A stretch of 33,455 nt of DNA from Clostridiales bacterium. Lineage in GTDB: Bacteria; Bacillota; Clostridia; Christensenellales; Pumilibacteraceae. Where the stretch lies: assembly GCA_031286385.1 (NCBI GenBank), contig JAITUJ010000006.1, positions 1-33,455 of the forward strand. Direction: 5' to 3'. The notes beneath the pieces were generated by a model that was not told the DNA's origin, searched no databases, and saw only the letters and a program-made list of their open reading frames with translations. Both the position numbers and the translations under genes were made by a program. Positions 10,428-19,131 of the stretch are shown here, one piece after another. Positions within the stretch are counted from its first letter, which is position 1; each line of letters opens with the position of its first letter.

Positions 10428-11258
10428 CTATACATGAGCAACATCAGGCTCAATTACATTGGAATCTGATTGTTCTTTGCTTTGATTCTTATATTTTGGC
10501 TTTGAATTTGAAAACCACAAAAATCCAGATTTACGAATAGTCCCAATGTTTATGCTACTTTGTCCTTTAAAGAAAGCTTTTGAATTGAAATCAGTACTAA
10601 AATTAAATTCTTTATCCATTTCTCCGTGGAGTACAGCATGTACAAGAGCATAAAACAGTGTCTCTTCATCATATTCACTTATTTTCAACAGATCCTTTCT
10701 ATCAGACTTGATGTCTTGCAAAAATTTTCTGCAATTTTTGATGTTTAAGTGAGGACTTTGACTTTGCTGTGGTTTTGCAAGTTGTACAATATGTTCTCTT
10801 GTCGTTGCTGCACTGCGTGGTCTGTCCCAAAATGGAGCAATTTCACTTTCAAAGTTCTTCAACAGACTTTTGGCTGTAATGTCTAAAAAAGTATTGTCTG
10901 CAATCAAACTACCACTTTTTTTGTCCCAATACATTCCTATGGCTGCCTCAGTGGGATAATCACCTTCGCCAGCTTCCATCGTGCTGTGGTCTCCACCACG
11001 CCTGCGCATTGCATACCTTTTATCTACTACGCCCTTTTTTGCATAGTCAAATATACTAGCATAGATTCCAAAAGCCAAGAACTCTTTGGTATTGGAAATA
11101 AAAAAGAAATTTTTATCACCATTCTTGGTATTATGGTGTTGTATGATATATCCGTACACACCATTTTTAAACTTTGTCCAGTTTGCATCGACTGGCGGCC
11201 CTTGCAAATGTGAGAAGTCTTTATTAAAAGTTGGAGCAAAAAGTAAATTATATAACAT
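10428..11258 (-). CDS. Unknown partner protein of the GTPase (276 aa)
   Basis: I do not recognise a family. The chosen ATG (11258) overlaps the GTPase stop by 11 nt and has GAAGG about 8 nt upstream; a TTG at 11273 would add five residues. The protein is soluble and mixed alpha/beta in look. Its N-terminal part has GPPVDANW and a run of aromatic and Gly residues (YGYIIQHH, FFFISN). The middle has RRRGGD and the end is charged and Ser/Gln-rich. The tight overlap means translational coupling and probably a physical or functional partnership with the GTPase, for example as regulator or effector. That role is inference from context only. Confidence 0.72.
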   Translation of the reverse strand: MLYNLLFAPTFNKDFSHLQGPPVDANWTKFKNGVYGYIIQHHNTKNGDKNFFFISNTKEFLAFGIYASIFDYAKKGVVDKRYAMRRRGGDHSTMEAGEGDYPTEAAIGMYWDKKSGSLIADNTFLDITAKSLLKNFESEIAPFWDRPRSAATTREHIVQLAKPQQSQSPHLNIKNCRKFLQDIKSDRKDLLKISEYDEETLFYALVHAVLHGEMDKEFNFSTDFNSKAFFKGQSSINIGTIRKSGFLWFSNSKPKYKNQSKEQSDSNVIEPDVAHV

Positions 11259-12012
11259 GAGGCATGCCTTCAAATTCTAGAATGTTTCGTAATACATATG
11301 CAAAAGTTTTACCACAAGACCAGTCATCGGCGTCACCTCTTACATCAGTTGAGTTTACAAAAGCAAAAGGGACTTCACTATTTCTAGCTGAAATAATTTC
11401 TGCGACTTTTGATTTTATAGAATCGTGAACTCTGTCGTGCATGCTAAATACTATGTGAGTGCTTACACCTTTGGATTTTTTTAAATGTGCTATTGCATCC
11501 ACAAGAGTGTTTAATTGATTTGTCATTTGAACCAATTTTTCATCATCTCTCAAAGTTCCTAAAAAGTCAGCACAGCTAAACAAAAGTATAACGCCGCTAG
11601 GGTGAGTTTCTGATTCACCTGACGCATAGCTTTCAAATAGTGAATTGAAAATGTCCAAATTTTGGGTTATGTCTGCACTAGCAGATTCTGATAGAAATGC
11701 TTCCTCTGTCAAACCACCTGGAGTGTCAGTTACAACAAATATAGGCCATTCTGGGTTAGTAGCCCACCCACCTATCAAACCTTTTTTGTGTTGTACGCAA
11801 ATAGCGGTCTTGTTTACCAACCTAGTATTGCCAACAGATTGTCCAGATTTAATCTTCTTTACATTCTGTTTTTGCTGTACGCGGTCATTTGCATCCATAA
11901 TATGCAATCTCTTACCACTTAACGCTTTGTTAATTTGAGCTATTGCAGTCGTCCAGTATGTCGTTTTGCCTGCGTCAAATTTACCAAGTAATAATACTTC
12001 TTTTTCTTCCAT
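11248..12012 (-). CDS. P-loop GTPase of the TRAFAC type, conflict-system-like
   Basis: The 254-residue product starts with a beta strand and a P-loop G-K-F-D-A-G-K-T-T (10-18). It then has VVTDTPGG (93-100) as the G3/Walker B element and a strand VILLFSCADF (141-150). A degenerate G4-like SMHDR lies at 190-194 in place of NKxD, and FVNSTDVRG at 218-226 is a possible G5. This layout fits small TRAFAC GTPases found in paired bacterial modules, some described as conflict systems. I cannot name the subfamily. AAAGGAG lies about 10 nt before the ATG. The operon has a consensus promoter and a strong terminator of its own and is oriented against all surrounding genes, typical of an acquired cassette. 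Confidence 0.8.
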   Translation of the reverse strand: MEEKEVLLLGKFDAGKTTYWTTAIAQINKALSGKRLHIMDANDRVQQKQNVKKIKSGQSVGNTRLVNKTAICVQHKKGLIGGWATNPEWPIFVVTDTPGGLTEEAFLSESASADITQNLDIFNSLFESYASGESETHPSGVILLFSCADFLGTLRDDEKLVQMTNQLNTLVDAIAHLKKSKGVSTHIVFSMHDRVHDSIKSKVAEIISARNSEVPFAFVNSTDVRGDADDWSCGKTFAYVLRNILEFEGMPHVI

Positions 12013-12566: not shown

Positions 12567-13604
12567 GTGTATAAGTACAATGCAACTTTAAAGTTATCAG
12601 ATGGTAGCACTTTTAAAGGATTTGGTGCAGGATTTATGCAAAACACTGGTGAAAAAGAAATCGTCTTTCATACCAACAATGTTGGAATTGTTCAAGTTGT
12701 TACAGATCCATGTAATGCGGGACAAATTATCGTGCAGACTTTTCCGATGATTGGTGACATAATCAATGCTCACAGCGAAGTTGAAAGTGATGATTATGTT
12801 GCTAGTGGGTATATACTAAAAACTCTCAATCACTTTACAAAAAATCAATGCAAAGTTGAATTTGATGAATTTTTAAAAAGTAAAGGTATTCCTTGCATTA
12901 CTGGCATAGATACAAGGGCACTGACGAATAAGATTAGAGAGTCAACGGTCAAGATAACTGGCAAAATTATTTTTGATAATCCTACAACATTTGCTTTGGC
13001 AAGAAATCTGATGGGTAAACTTAGTCAGTTTACTATTGGTGAAGGACCCATCAATGTAGCTCTTGTCAATCTTGGTATGAAGAATAGTACTAAAAATATT
13101 TTGTTAAAGTACGCTACCTTAAATGTTTTTAATGCTGACGTTGACTACAATAAAATAATGGCAGTTAAGCCACAAGCTATCGTGATCAGTGAAGGTCCTG
13201 GAACGCCATCAAGCCAAAAACTTGCAATTAATTTGGTAAAAGCAAATTTGGCGACAAAAGTCCCTGTGCCAATGTTGGGGTTGGGACTTGGTGCAAATAT
13301 TCTGGCTTTGGGTCATGGATTTAAAGTTGTCAGACTGCCCGTTGGGCACCATGGAAATCAAGCAATAAGAAAAATTTCTACTGGTAAAATATATCAAGTA
13401 GCAAGCAATAGCAATATGACTGTTTCCCAAAAAAGTATAACTCACGCTGCTAAAATCAGTTATCAAAATATTTGTGACAATTCTATTGTAGGACTAAATT
13501 ACAAGAAATCAAAGAGTATGGGTTTTGATTTCTTTGCCCAAAATCAAGCTGACAGTGACTGTTTAAGTTTTATATGGGATGAATTTTTTGGAGGAATAAA
13601 TTAA
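12567..13604 (+). CDS. carA: Carbamoyl-phosphate synthase small subunit homologue, glutaminase triad lost
   Basis: CarA normally hydrolyses glutamine and passes ammonia to CarB. The 345-residue protein keeps the family architecture: an N-terminal domain with GIDTRALTNKIRE (113-125) and a class I GATase fold with SEGPGTP (208-214). The catalytic residues are gone. Where CarA has G-x-C-x-G-H-Q there is G-L-G-L-G-A-N, so Cys becomes Gly240. The His of QNH is Ser282. In the final HPE motif the residues are Lys-Lys-Ser (313-315). The frame is nevertheless open over its whole length. The start has GGGGAGG about 5-7 nt upstream and uses GTG 12567 by frame. The stop overlaps the next ATG by one base. 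I infer a pseudoenzyme; a glutamine-dependent function is not plausible. Confidence 0.9.
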   Translation: MYKYNATLKLSDGSTFKGFGAGFMQNTGEKEIVFHTNNVGIVQVVTDPCNAGQIIVQTFPMIGDIINAHSEVESDDYVASGYILKTLNHFTKNQCKVEFDEFLKSKGIPCITGIDTRALTNKIRESTVKITGKIIFDNPTTFALARNLMGKLSQFTIGEGPINVALVNLGMKNSTKNILLKYATLNVFNADVDYNKIMAVKPQAIVISEGPGTPSSQKLAINLVKANLATKVPVPMLGLGLGANILALGHGFKVVRLPVGHHGNQAIRKISTGKIYQVASNSNMTVSQKSITHAAKISYQNICDNSIVGLNYKKSKSMGFDFFAQNQADSDCLSFIWDEFFGGIN

Positions 13605-16600
13605 TGCCACTAAATAGACATATAAAGAGAGTTTTAATTTTTGTTGAAGACGAATTTGACTGTTATTTAAAACAGGCGTGTACAGTGTTTAGAGATTGTG
13701 GAATTAAAGTTGTATTGGTAAGTCCAAACCCAAGTTTAACAGCAACAGTGAAGACAATGGCAGAAAAGATTTATTTTGAACCTGTCACTTTGGAAAATAT
13801 TCAACGCATTATTATAAAAGAACAGCCTGACAGTATATTAAATTTGTTTTGGGGAGAAAGGTTGATGTCTATCTGTATGCAGATGTCAGACAGTGGCTTT
13901 TTAAAAGACAATAATATAAAGTTGTTGGGTACTGAACAGTCAAAAAATGAAAAGATAAACGCGCTGTCAAATTTGACAGAGGATTTTAAAGAAGTTGAAT
14001 TTTTATTGTTGCGTGATAAGTTAGGCAATGCTTTGATGGTATCCAGCTCGGAAAAAGTCGTACCCTCACTACAAAAAAGCAATTCAATCGTAGTGTATCC
14101 GTCAATCAGTTTGTCTAAGCAAGTGAGTGATGCTTTAAAACAAAAGTCACTAGATTTGATGCACGACATGGAAATTGTAGGTGTTTGTAGTGTTGAGTTT
14201 GCAATAAATAAAAATAACTTTGAATTTGAGATAAAAAAAATAAGACCCAATTTGACGATGTCAAATATATATGCCGGTAAAGTTTTTGGGTACCCTATAA
14301 TAGAAGTGTCCATAAAATTGTCATTGGGATTTCATCTTGAAGAGATAAAAAATAAAATTACAGGCAATTGTGCGTGTATACAGCCTAATGTTGATTATTT
14401 GGCGCTAAAACTTTTCTCAGAAGAGAACGGAAATATTGTGACGATTGCTCATAGCTTTGAAGCTACTTTAATGAAAGCATTGAGAGGGGTCAACAGCGAT
14501 TTGCATACTCTAAATTTGCCAAAATTACAAAATTTAAGTGATGATGAACTTTTAAATTTATTAGAAGAACAAAGTGACCAAAGTATTTATTTGTGTTTTG
14601 AAGCTTTAAATAGAAATGTTGATGTTGAGATTTTAGCACACAAAACAAAAATTGATAAAGTATTTTTGTGTTGCATGCGCAACATTGTTGACATGCAATC
14701 AGAATTGACTAAAATAGAAGGGGACAAAACTGAAATTTATCAGCGAGCTAAAAAGATGGGGTTCTCTGATGACATCATTGATAAATTTGCTGGTGTCAAT
14801 TTTAGTCATGCTATAAAAAAACTAAATTCAAATTTTGGTTATACTTATCACGAAATTGACTCCTGTGCTGGTGAATATAAATCAAATTCATTGTGTTTTT
14901 ATAGTGAATGGAGCGATGCTTGTAGTAGTGCAATTGCACAAGATAAGTCACAATCAAAAGACAAGATAGTTTTATTGGCACCCAATCAAGTAGTCAACGG
15001 GAAACATGACTATTGTTCAAATTATTGCTTTGAACAAGCTGTCAGAATACTAAAAGATTTAGGTTATCAGATTTGCTCTGTCGGAAATAATTTGTTGTCA
15101 CTATTTACTGAAAGTGATGCTCCACATAAAATGTACACAGAGTCACTGTGCATAGAAGATATAATGGGTGTAATAAACAAAGAAAAACCAACTGGTGTAA
15201 TGATACCATTTGGGGGAGAACACGCAAATACAATAGCCCAAAAATTGTCCAGAAATGGTGTAAAGGTTTTGGGTACTAGTACAGACAGTGTTGATTTAGT
15301 TTGGGACTCTGTTCGTTTTTTTCAAAGTTTGCATTCTTTGGGTATAGATTATACTGATTTAAATGAAAATTACAATGTTGTAAAAGATAAATTTATCAGT
15401 GTAGACGCCATTACAGACGGCAATGAAGTTTTAATACTGGGATTTTTGCAACACAGCAGCTTTTCGGAATATGGTAATAGTCAAAAAATTATGATTTATC
15501 CATCGAGCAGTATAAATGATGAAGTTGCTCAACAAATTTTATCTATTTCAAAAAAAATTGTCAAACATTTAAAGTGTAAAGGATTGTTTCAGCTTTGTGT
15601 CTTAATAAAGGGGCAGGAAGTATTTGTTCAAAATTTAATACTAGGAGCTAGCAACAATATTCCATTTTTGTCAAAAGCATTGGAATTGCCAGTGTTTGAA
15701 TTGGCAATAAAAGCTATGACAGGGAAAAAATGGACAGATGTAAATTTTGGTGTAGAGTATTTGCCTTATATTGCTGACAAAGTGGCTTATTTACAAGAGA
15801 GTCAAGCATTTGGAATAGGCAAAACTGTCCGTGAGGCTGTACTAAAAGCGATGTTAGCAACGGACTGTGATGACGTTTTGCAGAATCACTTTGACACGAA
15901 TAATACTAAACTCATAACATTAAATGACATGCGTAAATCAAAACAAGAGTTAAGGTTTGTAAAAATGCATGGGGTTGGTAATGATTATGTGTTTGTGGAT
16001 TGTCGCAGAAAAGAATTGGATTCGGTGCAAAATTTGGCGGTTGAGTTGTCCAATAGGCACTTTGGCATTGGAAGTGATGGGCTAGTTTTGATATTAAAGT
16101 CAAATTCAGCAGATGCAAAAATGTGTATGTACAACGCAGATGGTTCAGAAGGCTCTATGTGTGGCAATGCTATCCGATGTATTGCAAAGTACTTGTTTGA
16201 TAGTGGCAGTGTTAAAAAAACTACAATGAGTATTGAAACGGCTTCCATGATTTGTCAAGTTAAGTTAATACTGTCAAGAGGAAAAGCCATTGGTGCAAAA
16301 GTGACATTGGAAAGTCCAAAAGTTGTGGAAAAAAGAAAAATAATCATTGAAGATATTGAGAAAGATGTCGTGTTTGTCAATGTAGGCAATGACCATTGTG
16401 TTCATTTTGTTCCTAATTTGAGTGTAATTGAGTTTGGAAAAAGAGCGCCACTTTATCAAAACCATCCGGATTTTATGGATAAACCCAATGTAGAATTTGT
16501 GCAGATAATCAGTAAATCTGAGATTAGTATTAGAGTTTTTGAAAGAGGCAGTGGGGAAACACTAGCTTGTGGGTCTGGTGCCTGTGCGGCTGTTGTAGCA

Positions 16601-16744
16601 GCAGTAAGCCAGGGGATGTGTCAAATGGATTCAGAAATAACGGTCAATCTGTTGGGTGGAGTATTAACGGTTAACTACAATGAGCAAAATATTCTACTCA
16701 CTGGTGAGTGTTGCACTGTATTTAGTGGAATAATGGAAATTTAA
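13604..16744 (+). CDS. dapF: Fusion: degenerate CarB (1-775) plus diaminopimelate epimerase DapF (782-1046)
   Basis: The first 775 residues follow CarB through both halves, for example MGFSDDIIDKFAGV (385-398), the linker IDSCAGEY (418-425) and EKPTGVMIPFGGEHA (527-541). The ATP-grasp ligands are lost. Aligning on SKA/GYP, the E-x-N-P-R motif becomes K-I-R-P-N (212-216) in the first half and N-L-I-L-G (677-681) in the second. The N-terminal glycine-rich loop is missing and the allosteric MGS domain is absent. DapF follows in the same frame: KMHGVGNDYV (787-796), MYNADGSEGSMCGNAIRC with catalytic Cys853, and ERGSGETLACGSGACA with catalytic Cys989. DapF isomerises LL- to meso-diaminopimelate for peptidoglycan and lysine. 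No SD precedes an internal DapF start (ATG 15929 is the best candidate). GGAGG precedes the gene's own ATG. Confidence 0.9.
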   Translation: MPLNRHIKRVLIFVEDEFDCYLKQACTVFRDCGIKVVLVSPNPSLTATVKTMAEKIYFEPVTLENIQRIIIKEQPDSILNLFWGERLMSICMQMSDSGFLKDNNIKLLGTEQSKNEKINALSNLTEDFKEVEFLLLRDKLGNALMVSSSEKVVPSLQKSNSIVVYPSISLSKQVSDALKQKSLDLMHDMEIVGVCSVEFAINKNNFEFEIKKIRPNLTMSNIYAGKVFGYPIIEVSIKLSLGFHLEEIKNKITGNCACIQPNVDYLALKLFSEENGNIVTIAHSFEATLMKALRGVNSDLHTLNLPKLQNLSDDELLNLLEEQSDQSIYLCFEALNRNVDVEILAHKTKIDKVFLCCMRNIVDMQSELTKIEGDKTEIYQRAKKMGFSDDIIDKFAGVNFSHAIKKLNSNFGYTYHEIDSCAGEYKSNSLCFYSEWSDACSSAIAQDKSQSKDKIVLLAPNQVVNGKHDYCSNYCFEQAVRILKDLGYQICSVGNNLLSLFTESDAPHKMYTESLCIEDIMGVINKEKPTGVMIPFGGEHANTIAQKLSRNGVKVLGTSTDSVDLVWDSVRFFQSLHSLGIDYTDLNENYNVVKDKFISVDAITDGNEVLILGFLQHSSFSEYGNSQKIMIYPSSSINDEVAQQILSISKKIVKHLKCKGLFQLCVLIKGQEVFVQNLILGASNNIPFLSKALELPVFELAIKAMTGKKWTDVNFGVEYLPYIADKVAYLQESQAFGIGKTVREAVLKAMLATDCDDVLQNHFDTNNTKLITLNDMRKSKQELRFVKMHGVGNDYVFVDCRRKELDSVQNLAVELSNRHFGIGSDGLVLILKSNSADAKMCMYNADGSEGSMCGNAIRCIAKYLFDSGSVKKTTMSIETASMICQVKLILSRGKAIGAKVTLESPKVVEKRKIIIEDIEKDVVFVNVGNDHCVHFVPNLSVIEFGKRAPLYQNHPDFMDKPNVEFVQIISKSEISIRVFERGSGETLACGSGACAAVVAAVSQGMCQMDSEITVNLLGGVLTVNYNEQNILLTGECCTVFSGIMEI

Positions 16745-16803: not shown

Positions 16804-18405
16804 ATGAGCAAACATATTTTTATTACCGGTGGTGTAGCTTCGGGTATTGGCAAAGGGATAACCTCTGCTTCATTGGGTAGATTATTGAAATCACGCAATT
16901 TAAAAGTAGTTGCACAAAAGTTGGATCCATATCTAAATGCCGATCCAGGTTTGCTTAACCCTTTGGAGCATGGAGAGGTGTTCGTATTAGATGATGGTAC
17001 AGAGGCTGATTTGGACTTGGGGCACTATGAAAGGTTTATAGATGAAAACTTGACCAGTTTTAGTACAACTACAAGTGGTAAAGTTTACTGTGATATGTTG
17101 ATAGCAGAAAAGACTGGAAAGTTTAATGGAATCACAATACAAGTTATACCACATGTAACAGATGAAACTAAGAAAATAGTTTATGACTGCGCTAAAAAAA
17201 GTAAAGCCGATGTTGTTATTACAGAGATAGGTGGTACAGTAGGTGATCTGGAAAGCCAAGCTTTTATAGAAGCAGCAAGGCAGATAAGTATTGAAAAACC
17301 AAATGATTGCCTATTTATACATGTTTCTCTTGTGCCATTTTTAAAGTTAAGTAGCGAGTATAAGACAAAACCCACACAGCACAGTGTTAAGATGTTACAG
17401 TCTATGGGAATTAGACCAGATATAATAGTGACTAGAAGTGATGAAAAAATGGATCAAGTTTCATTGGATAAAATCTCAAAGTTCTGTTATGTTCAAAAAG
17501 ACTGTGTAGTGCAAAACTACAATGTAAATCACCTGTATGAAATACCATTAATACTGCATAATGGAGGACTAGATTCCGTTGTAGTTAGACAATTAAAGTT
17601 GAAATGTTCAGCACCAAACTTGACTGAATGGCAAAGGGTCGTGGACAGTATTAAGACACTTGATGGAGCCGTTAATGTTGCATTAGTTGGTAAATATGTA
17701 GCCCTGCAAGATTCTTACTTGTCCGAAGTCGAAGCACTGTCCCATGCAGGGTTTGCTTGTGGTAAAAAAATACGCATTAAATGGGTGGATAGCAACACTC
17801 TAAATGAGGAAAATGCCAGTGTGCTATTGGGTGATTGTGCAGGTGTTTTGGTTCCTGGTGCATTTGGAAGTAGAGGTATAGACGGTTTGATTGTGGCTTG
17901 TAAGTATGCAAGAGAGCATAATATACCATATTTAGGATTGAGCATGGGTATGCAAGTAGCCTGTATAGAGTTTGCTAAAAATGTTTGTGGTCTAAAAAAT
18001 GCTACGAGTACTGAGTTTGAAAAAGACACAAAAGTACCCGTTGTGCACTTGATGAGTAATTTAAATGTGCGTACCAAAGATGGTTCAATGCGTATTGGAG
18101 CGTATGACTGCACATTGTTAAAAGACAGTAAAATTTCTAAACTCTATCAAAGTCTAGATATTAGTGAAAGGCATCGCAATCGCTATGAGATAAATTTTGA
18201 CTTTATAAAAACTCTAACAGACAGTGGATTGACGATTAGTGGCAGAAGTGTAATAGGCAGTTTTGTAGAAAGCATAGAAAATCCAGCTTGTGATTTTTTT
18301 ATTGCAGTACAGTACCATCCACAGTTCAAATCTCGTCCGAATAGAGCGCATCCGTTATTTAAAGGTTTTGTAGAAGCTATGATGGGGAAACCATTCAACA
18401 ACTAA
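16804..18405 (+). CDS. pyrG: CTP synthase with inactivated glutaminase domain
   Basis: PyrG aminates UTP to CTP. The 533-residue protein has an intact synthase domain: GGVASGIGKGI (9-19), DPYLNADPG (41-49), DDGTEADLDLGHYERF (63-78) and TEIGGTVGDLES (140-151). In the C-terminal GATase domain the nucleophile motif is G-L-S-M-G-M-Q, so Cys is Ser380. The last motif reads YHPQ (504-507), keeping His505 but with Gln507 in place of Glu. The oxyanion loop has PGAFG in place of PGGFG. In E. coli, mutation of this Cys abolishes glutamine use but leaves ammonia-dependent activity. I infer an ammonia-only enzyme. It lies 59 nt after the CarB-DapF gene with SD GAGGG, so it is probably in the same operon. 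Confidence 0.95.
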   Translation: MSKHIFITGGVASGIGKGITSASLGRLLKSRNLKVVAQKLDPYLNADPGLLNPLEHGEVFVLDDGTEADLDLGHYERFIDENLTSFSTTTSGKVYCDMLIAEKTGKFNGITIQVIPHVTDETKKIVYDCAKKSKADVVITEIGGTVGDLESQAFIEAARQISIEKPNDCLFIHVSLVPFLKLSSEYKTKPTQHSVKMLQSMGIRPDIIVTRSDEKMDQVSLDKISKFCYVQKDCVVQNYNVNHLYEIPLILHNGGLDSVVVRQLKLKCSAPNLTEWQRVVDSIKTLDGAVNVALVGKYVALQDSYLSEVEALSHAGFACGKKIRIKWVDSNTLNEENASVLLGDCAGVLVPGAFGSRGIDGLIVACKYAREHNIPYLGLSMGMQVACIEFAKNVCGLKNATSTEFEKDTKVPVVHLMSNLNVRTKDGSMRIGAYDCTLLKDSKISKLYQSLDISERHRNRYEINFDFIKTLTDSGLTISGRSVIGSFVESIENPACDFFIAVQYHPQFKSRPNRAHPLFKGFVEAMMGKPFNN

Positions 18406-18549: not shown

Positions 18550-19131
18550 ATGTCACAAAATGTTCAAAATACAAGCTTGGTAAGAGGGGAGCGAACACTA
18601 CAAAAATTGTCAATGCAACAAATTGTTCAAGCTTTTGACAGTGTAATACAGAAAGCAAAAAATCAATCGGTTGCTTTACCAAAAAATAATAGTGCAAAAT
18701 CAAAGTTGTACTTTGCTGCTCCTTGGTTTAACGAGTTAGAAGAGCTTATATACAAAAAATGTCAGTGTATATTTGACGCTGTGAGCTTAAAGTCAAAGTA
18801 TGAAGTGTTTTGGCCAAAGGATAATGTGTACGATACTCCAAATGAAGCTTTTTTAGCAGATGTCAGAGAAATAAAAAGTGCTGAAATTATTTTGGCACTA
18901 GTGACCACACTAGATGTCGGTACCGCTTGGGAAATAGGTTATGCGTATGCTCTGAACAAAAAAATTGTATTGTTAGGCTTTGATGAAAGTTGTTTGATGT
19001 CACACATCAACATTATGTTGGGGTTTTCTGCTGATTTCATTACAATTGAAAGTTTGCAAAAGTTATTAGTGGGTACAATAGAACAAAAAGATTTCATCAA
19101 AATAGACAACACTTGGCAAGGTAAGCAATAG
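18550..19131 (+). CDS. Nucleoside 2-deoxyribosyltransferase-like protein
   Basis: The 193-residue product has an N-terminal extension of about 50 residues and then a domain that fits the nucleoside 2-deoxyribosyltransferase family: KLYFAAPWF (52-60) as the first strand and loop, an Asp in FLADVREIKSAEI, and DVGTAWEIGYAYAL, whose Glu is the expected nucleophile, followed by KKIVLLGF. These enzymes move deoxyribose between bases in nucleoside salvage; related proteins hydrolyse modified or damaged nucleotides. SD is TAGGAGAT. It follows pyrG and fits a salvage context. The following 95-aa gene begins 2 nt after its stop. Specificity for purine or pyrimidine cannot be read from the sequence. Confidence 0.8.
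   Translation: MSQNVQNTSLVRGERTLQKLSMQQIVQAFDSVIQKAKNQSVALPKNNSAKSKLYFAAPWFNELEELIYKKCQCIFDAVSLKSKYEVFWPKDNVYDTPNEAFLADVREIKSAEIILALVTTLDVGTAWEIGYAYALNKKIVLLGFDESCLMSHINIMLGFSADFITIESLQKLLVGTIEQKDFIKIDNTWQGKQ

What the first reader, a model, noticed from the sequence alone, without database searches (positions are those of the whole stretch)
13604..16744. Fusion of a degenerate CarB to diaminopimelate epimerase
One uninterrupted frame joins a CarB-like region lacking the E-x-N-P-R ligands in both ATP-grasp halves and the MGS domain to a DapF with both catalytic Cys (853 and 989). I know of no described CarB-DapF fusion. One explanation is passive: missense decay of CarB is tolerated but frameshifts are purged because DapF is downstream. 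Another is that CarB became a scaffold or sensor controlling DapF and so cell-wall/lysine synthesis.
Basis: partly seen in the sequence, partly recalled or inferred. Interest (0 to 1): 0.85.

Follow-up and report, generated by a model that had tools for sequence, protein, structure and literature searches.

The report
Dead CarB scaffold fused to DapF
In this bacterium the cell-wall enzyme DapF is the tail of a shrunken, catalytically dead carbamoyl-phosphate synthase; the fusion itself is ancient and common in its relatives, but here the dead half and its dead partner subunit still look selected, which makes it a natural experiment in how an enzyme becomes a structural part.

Summary
The 1046-aa frame (13604-16744) joins a CarB without its ATP/metal ligands or MGS domain to a complete DapF, the only dapF found in this 87%-complete genome. 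(1) The fusion is not unique: carA - carB::dapF (~1350 aa, intact CarB) - pyrG is shared across the order (44 of 74 family genomes have the full-length fused frame). No paper describing it was found. (2) What is special is the genus: its two genomes lost CPSase catalysis (CarB ligands gone; CarA Cys269 to Gly in both) together with pyrF, pyrD and PyrB. The only carbamoyltransferase left, in one genome, sits in an arginine-deiminase cluster. CarB shrank in frame to ~755 aa here and ~390 aa in the sister. Passive decay is not enough: unfused CarA is also still open in both, and second codon positions differ at 34% (CarA) and 41% (CarB) while synonymous sites are near saturation. A strong Shine-Dalgarno precedes CarB; none was found at the DapF junction. 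Best explanation: pseudo-CarA/pseudo-CarB is kept as an assembly scaffold of DapF (0.55). Passive decay shielded by the fusion is the main rival (0.25). A new sensor role is possible but unsupported.

The parts
12567..13604 (+). pseudo-CarA, 345 aa: CPSase small chain whose glutaminase triad is gone (Cys269->Gly, His353->Phe, Glu355->Gln, E. coli numbering); unfused, frame open; its TAA overlaps the ATG of the fusion (TAATG)
13590..13594 (+). Shine-Dalgarno GGAGG before the fused gene (duplex -9.3 kcal/mol); a TAGGAG site (-7.3) sits there in sister genome G348
13604..16744 (+). fused pseudo-CarB::DapF gene, 1046 aa
13604..13954 (+). pre-ATP-grasp domain of the first CarB half (residues 1-117)
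13952..13984 (+). site of the in-frame deletion of the first ATP-grasp lid (profile positions 126-211 missing)
13982..15349 (+). rest of first ATP-grasp without its ligands, oligomerisation domain D3, second pre-ATP-grasp domain (residues 127-582; profile 212-677)
15350..15388 (+). site of the in-frame deletion of the second ATP-grasp lid (profile 678-747 missing)
15389..15787 (+). rest of the second ATP-grasp without its ligands (residues 596-728; profile 748-883)
15788..15868 (+). remnant followed by the point where the MGS domain is lost (profile about 930-1042 missing)
15869..15943 (+). old junction, from the last residues of CarB into the first residues of DapF; no Shine-Dalgarno (ATG of residue 776: +2.3; 788: -3.3 kcal/mol)
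15944..16741 (+). DapF, complete, catalytic Cys853 (16160-16162) and Cys989 (16568-16570)
16804..18405 (+). PyrG (CTP synthase), same operon; glutaminase nucleophile Cys->Ser (GLSMGMQ) and HPE->HPQ
18550..19131 (+). nucleoside 2-deoxyribosyltransferase-like gene, probably base salvage; context only

Best explanation
The ancestor of the order fused carB to dapF inside a carA-carB-dapF-pyrG operon, giving a two-function protein. In the genus of this window the pyrimidine pathway was lost, so carbamoyl-phosphate synthesis had no client. CarA and CarB lost their catalytic residues, CarB shed its ATP-grasp lids and other segments in frame, and DapF stayed active. The remaining CPSase core, with pseudo-CarA bound to it, is kept as a folded N-terminal scaffold on which DapF depends for folding, assembly or stability. 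Shown: the fusion, the loss of catalytic residues, the absence of pathway genes in two incomplete genomes, intact DapF residues, post-split amino-acid constraint, no ribosome site at the DapF junction. Inferred: that DapF is active, that CarA still binds, that the product is one chain, and that DapF needs the scaffold.
For: Intact fused operon in relatives. pyrF and pyrD absent in G000 and G348 but present in all other family genomes tested. G000's only carbamoyltransferase lies with arcC, arcD and arcA; G348 has none. dapB is kept in both genomes. Pseudo-CarA is open in both members (345 and 334 aa), 36% identical; pos 1/2/3 differences 0.48/0.34/0.64 against saturation 0.71/0.72/0.68; for the CarB block 0.51/0.41/0.65. 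Four-fold sites of a conserved neighbour differ at 0.57. A neutral simulation at the observed pos-3 divergence gives pos-2 about 0.64, about 10% identity and about 19 stops in CarA; observed 0.34, 36%, 0. The GATase domains of the two pseudo-CarAs are more alike (0.41) than either is to intact CarA (0.26-0.28), with a long shared stem. Both members keep parts of the first CarB half. The AlphaFold2 model of residues 1-762 matches CPS large chains (Z 34-41, 737-751 residues, rmsd 2.6-2.9).
Against: The two members keep different CarB segments (G000: second half, no MGS; G348: MGS, no second half or D3), so no fixed scaffold beyond part of half A is conserved. Evolution is much faster than in intact CarB. 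Fifteen family genomes have a free-standing DapF (one of them also has a fused copy), so DapF as such does not need CarB. The structure model was built from an alignment of CarB homologues and leans to that fold; its DapF half is unreliable (no useful alignment). Only two genomes of the genus were available, both incomplete (87% and 90%).
Confidence: 0.55

Rival explanations
1. Passive decay shielded by the fusion: CPSase is useless, missense changes and in-frame deletions accumulate, and only frameshifts and stops are purged because they would remove DapF. CarA stays open only because stops there would uncouple or dampen translation of the fusion.
For: CarB lost different segments in the two members, by in-frame deletions only. 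CarA stop and CarB start overlap or lie 8 bases apart. Branches are long.
Against: Second-position and amino-acid constraint after the split in both pseudo-CarA and pseudo-CarB. The dead GATase domain is the better conserved part of CarA (43% identity, pos-2 difference 0.27). The fusion has its own strong Shine-Dalgarno, so coupling is not strictly needed.
Confidence: 0.25
2. Exaptation as a sensor: the pseudo-CPSase binds a ligand (nucleotide, arginine or ornithine, carbamate) and tunes DapF, and so cell-wall or lysine synthesis.
For: Constraint on pseudo-CarA and pseudo-CarB; derived conservation of the pseudo-GATase domain.
Against: MGS, the known allosteric domain, is lost in G000 and kept in G348. 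In G000 both ATP-grasp lids and nearly all ATP/metal ligands tested are gone. No conserved ligand pocket was identified.
Confidence: 0.1
3. DapF is made separately, from an internal start or by proteolysis, and the CarB part is a relic leader.
For: In-frame ATG at residue 776 and in many relatives at the same place; weak site at ATG 750 (-5.6, poor spacing); in G348 a TTG at residue 383 with -5.2.
Against: No Shine-Dalgarno at the junction in G000 and no consistent one in relatives; G348 lacks the junction ATG; strong sites stand at carA, carB and pyrG.
Confidence: 0.08
4. Assembly or annotation artefact.
For: None found.
Against: Same junction and operon in many separately assembled genomes, one of them a reduced version in the same genus.
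Confidence: 0.02

Closest known systems
Intact CarB::DapF fusions of the same order (G112, G334, G117 and others)
   Same: Same operon (carA, fused gene, and in most loci read pyrG), near end-to-end junction of CarB and DapF, orthologous DapF
   Different: There CarB is full length (~1070 aa) with all ligands and MGS; here it is cut to ~755 aa and dead
Carbamoyl-phosphate synthase CarA/CarB (E. coli; PDB 1jdb, 1bxr)
   Same: Domain order and predicted core fold
   Different: No ExNPR ligands, no lids, no MGS, no CarA glutaminase triad: cannot be a working CPSase
Pseudo-dihydroorotase of Pseudomonas aeruginosa ATCase (PMC7053772)
   Same: A dead pyrimidine-pathway enzyme kept because its active partner needs it for assembly (works like)
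   Different: Separate chains in the same pathway; here the pseudoenzyme is fused to an enzyme of another pathway
Bifunctional DapF/glutamate racemase of Chlamydia trachomatis (PMC5885031; NCBIfam NF038284)
   Same: A DapF with an added role in a reduced bacterium
   Different: Two activities of one DapF domain, no fusion; this protein scores 119 bits against a cut-off of 350

Membership tests
Diaminopimelate epimerase (DapF, TIGR00652/PF01678) | Score above the curated cut-off over the whole domain | tested here: met
   226.6 against 114.65 bits; PF01678 twice, 167.4 against 34.7
Diaminopimelate epimerase (DapF, TIGR00652/PF01678) | Two catalytic cysteines in MCGN and ACGxG contexts | tested here: met
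   Cys853 and Cys989; aligned with solved DapF chains
Diaminopimelate epimerase (DapF, TIGR00652/PF01678) | Epimerase activity | not testable with these tools
   needs an assay
Carbamoyl-phosphate synthase large chain (CarB, TIGR01369) | Score above the equivalog cut-off | tested here: not met
   411.8 against 1027 bits: homologous, but not a CarB equivalog
Carbamoyl-phosphate synthase large chain (CarB, TIGR01369) | ExNPR metal/ATP ligands in both ATP-grasp halves | tested here: not met
   K/R/N and N/I/G in place of E/N/R
Carbamoyl-phosphate synthase large chain (CarB, TIGR01369) | ATP-grasp lids and MGS domain present | tested here: not met
   profile positions 126-211, 678-747 and the MGS missing
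Glutamine-dependent CPSase small chain (CarA, TIGR01368) | Cys-His-Glu triad of the glutaminase | tested here: not met
   Cys269 Gly in both genomes; His353/Glu355 replaced or lost
CarB::DapF fusion of this order | DapF follows the CarB C-terminus in one frame, downstream of carA | tested here: met
Structural pseudoenzyme needed by its partner (pDHO-ATCase type) | Partner enzyme needs the dead protein | not testable with these tools
   needs expression of DapF with and without the N-terminal part

The most novel reading that the evidence does not exclude
A dead CPSase complex (pseudo-CarA plus pseudo-CarB) was turned into a regulator that senses a nucleotide or arginine-type ligand and sets DapF activity, coupling cell-wall synthesis to nucleotide or nitrogen supply in a pyrimidine auxotroph.
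Probability: 0.1. Interest if true: 0.85.

Novelty: new variant of a known kind. Interest (0 to 1): 0.55.

Why it matters
An order-wide fusion of a pyrimidine/arginine enzyme with a cell-wall enzyme seems not to have been described, and its biochemical reason is unknown. The genus of this window removes CPSase activity while keeping parts of the fused body and its partner, so it separates the catalytic from the structural role of a fused enzyme. It also makes a general question testable: does a fusion entrench a dead domain because its partner needs it, or only because frameshifts are purged?

Tried and rejected
Internal DapF start: no Shine-Dalgarno at the junction of G000. Second dapF or carB in the genome: none found; the other ATP-grasp hits are single-domain frames of 431 and 379 aa. 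CarB remnants upstream of free-standing dapF in eight relatives: none found. A MAFFT placement of G348 CarB was unreliable, so a profile of intact fusions was used. Some DapF and PyrG extractions failed on regular expressions or strand and were repeated (redone in 33 and 45). The DapF tree did not settle whether free-standing DapFs arose by fission or replacement. Literature searches for a CarB-DapF fusion and for a CPSase pseudoenzyme found no such report.

Full report
Observation. The window holds one frame, 13604-16744, of 1046 aa. Pfam and NCBIfam read it as the pre-ATP-grasp, part of the ATP-grasp and the oligomerisation domains of CarB, followed by a complete DapF. The score is far below the CarB equivalog cut-off (411.8 against 1027 bits) and well above the DapF cut-off (226.6 against 114.65). 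No other dapF was found in the genome, which is 1.37 Mb in 94 contigs and 87% complete.

The fusion is old and shared. In the order (297 genomes searched) many genomes have DapF in frames of about 1350 aa together with CarB. In the window's family, 44 of 74 genomes have a DapF match in a full-length frame of 1347-1385 aa, and several more run off a contig end (counted from the list). In the 20 loci read from relatives the fused frame is intact (about 1350 aa; one runs off its contig) in all but the same-genus genome G348, where it is 666 aa; carA lies upstream in nearly all and pyrG next to it in most. CarB ends and DapF begins almost end to end, with the junction NTELVDIN.MR..KQ.L.FIKM. Across the phylum sample, 18 of 398 genomes align over almost all of the 240 junction residues in frames of 1314-1389 aa. 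This excludes an assembly error. Papers naming such a fusion were not found. I recall automatic names such as 'multifunctional fusion protein' in public databases, but could not check this.

What is special is the genus. Against a profile of intact fusions, the window protein keeps positions 1-125, 212-677, 748-883 and 1043-1346; the only other genome of the genus (G348, 666 aa) keeps 25-88, 245-356 and 947-1346. In the window protein the gaps remove the corresponding segment, the ATP-binding lid, of both homologous halves, and the MGS domain. E299/N301/R303 and E841/N843/R845 (E. coli numbering) are K/R/N and N/I/G; H243 and H788 are also lost. CarA, upstream and unfused, has Gly for catalytic Cys269 in both genomes and lacks the His and Glu of the triad.

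Why CPSase became dispensable. PyrF and PyrD are absent from both genus members and present in all other family genomes tested. The window genome keeps one carbamoyltransferase, inside an argF-arcC-arcD-arcA cluster, that is, the arginine deiminase pathway, which makes carbamoyl phosphate rather than using it; G348 has none. Both genomes are incomplete, but joint absence in both of genes found in every comparison genome makes loss by far the likelier reading. dapB is present in both, so the DAP pathway is probably in use.

Decay or selection. Between the two members synonymous sites are near saturation: four-fold sites of an 82%-identical neighbouring gene differ at 0.57, those of PyrG at 0.58. 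In pseudo-CarA the three codon positions differ at 0.48/0.34/0.64 with saturation at 0.71/0.72/0.68; in the shared pseudo-CarB block 0.51/0.41/0.65; in DapF 0.33/0.26/0.61. A neutral simulation reaching the observed third-position divergence gives second-position differences of about 0.64, about 10% amino-acid identity and about 19 stops in CarA; observed are 0.34, 36% and none. The loss of catalysis predates the split: both have Cys269 to Gly, and the two GATase domains share a long stem (1.45, support 0.999) and are more alike (0.41) than either is to intact CarA (0.26-0.28). So a dead CarA, not fused to anything, was under amino-acid constraint. Caveats: only two genomes, saturated synonymous sites, a possible long-branch effect on the stem, and one other relative (G335) that lost the same Cys on its own, so parallel loss is possible.

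One product. Predicted Shine-Dalgarno duplexes are -12.0 kcal/mol at carA, -9.3 at the fusion start and -6.3 at pyrG, but +2.3 and -3.3 at the in-frame ATGs at the DapF junction; a weaker, badly spaced site lies at ATG 750 (-5.6). In G348 the junction ATG is gone, though a TTG with -5.2 exists. A single chain is the simplest reading but is not proved.

Structure. With an 11-sequence alignment (ten homologues, nine of them CarB), AlphaFold2 gave mean pLDDT 63.8 and pTM 0.62; most of residues 1-750 are at 70-90, while the DapF part, nearly without an alignment, is poor. Residues 1-762 align with human CPS1 and E. coli CarB over 737-751 residues at 2.6-2.9 A, Z 34-41. The alignment biases the model towards CarB; it shows that a lid-less core is compatible with the fold, not that it folds.

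Mechanism. I take the pseudo-CarA/pseudo-CarB complex to be a structural body for DapF. From established knowledge of CPSase, ammonia passes from CarA into the carboxyphosphate (first) half of CarB; parts of that half are what both members keep, which fits a retained CarA docking surface (inference). A dead pyrimidine enzyme needed by an active partner is known: the pseudo-dihydroorotase of P. aeruginosa is inactive but required for ATCase activity and stabilises the complex by about 30 deg C (PMC7053772). Passive shielding remains the main rival, since the two members keep different CarB pieces.

Verdict. A real, one-chain (by frame) pseudo-CarB::DapF; an old fusion with a new, dead variant; a scaffold role likely but unproved.

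Noticed in passing
window 16804-18405; L104: The CTP synthase PyrG of both genus members has lost its glutaminase nucleophile (Cys->Ser here, Cys->Gly in G348) and HPE has become HPQ/QPQ; it may use free ammonia. The only two class-I glutaminase domains found in each genome (CarA, PyrG) are thus both dead, and no GuaA-type match was listed.
   Followed up: partly
L106 (G112 second pyrG): Several family genomes carry a second PyrG; the one read, in G112, has a degenerate glutaminase site (GLGAQ, RPE) beside the intact operon PyrG.
   Followed up: no
L081 (G335 carA, 1168-2244): CarA with Cys269->Gly, His353->Gln, Glu355->Gly beside a full-length CarB::DapF: possibly an ammonia-dependent CPSase that arose on its own.
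   Followed up: no
window 10428-12012 (minus strand): Two divergently transcribed genes without Pfam or NCBIfam match, one with a P-loop (GKFDAGKT), next to carA in both genus members; 83% and 57% identical between them.
   Followed up: partly
G315, G317, G055, G076, G210 (L107, L108, L112-L114): Relatives with free-standing dapF directly before pyrG and a separate CarB elsewhere; several of these CarBs are only about 50-60% identical to the fused type, suggesting replacement of the CarB part or fission of the fusion.
   Followed up: partly
families f20 and f29: Many nearly complete genomes of 0.8-1.7 Mb in the order with no match at all to the fusion, that is, apparently without CarB and DapF.
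   Followed up: no
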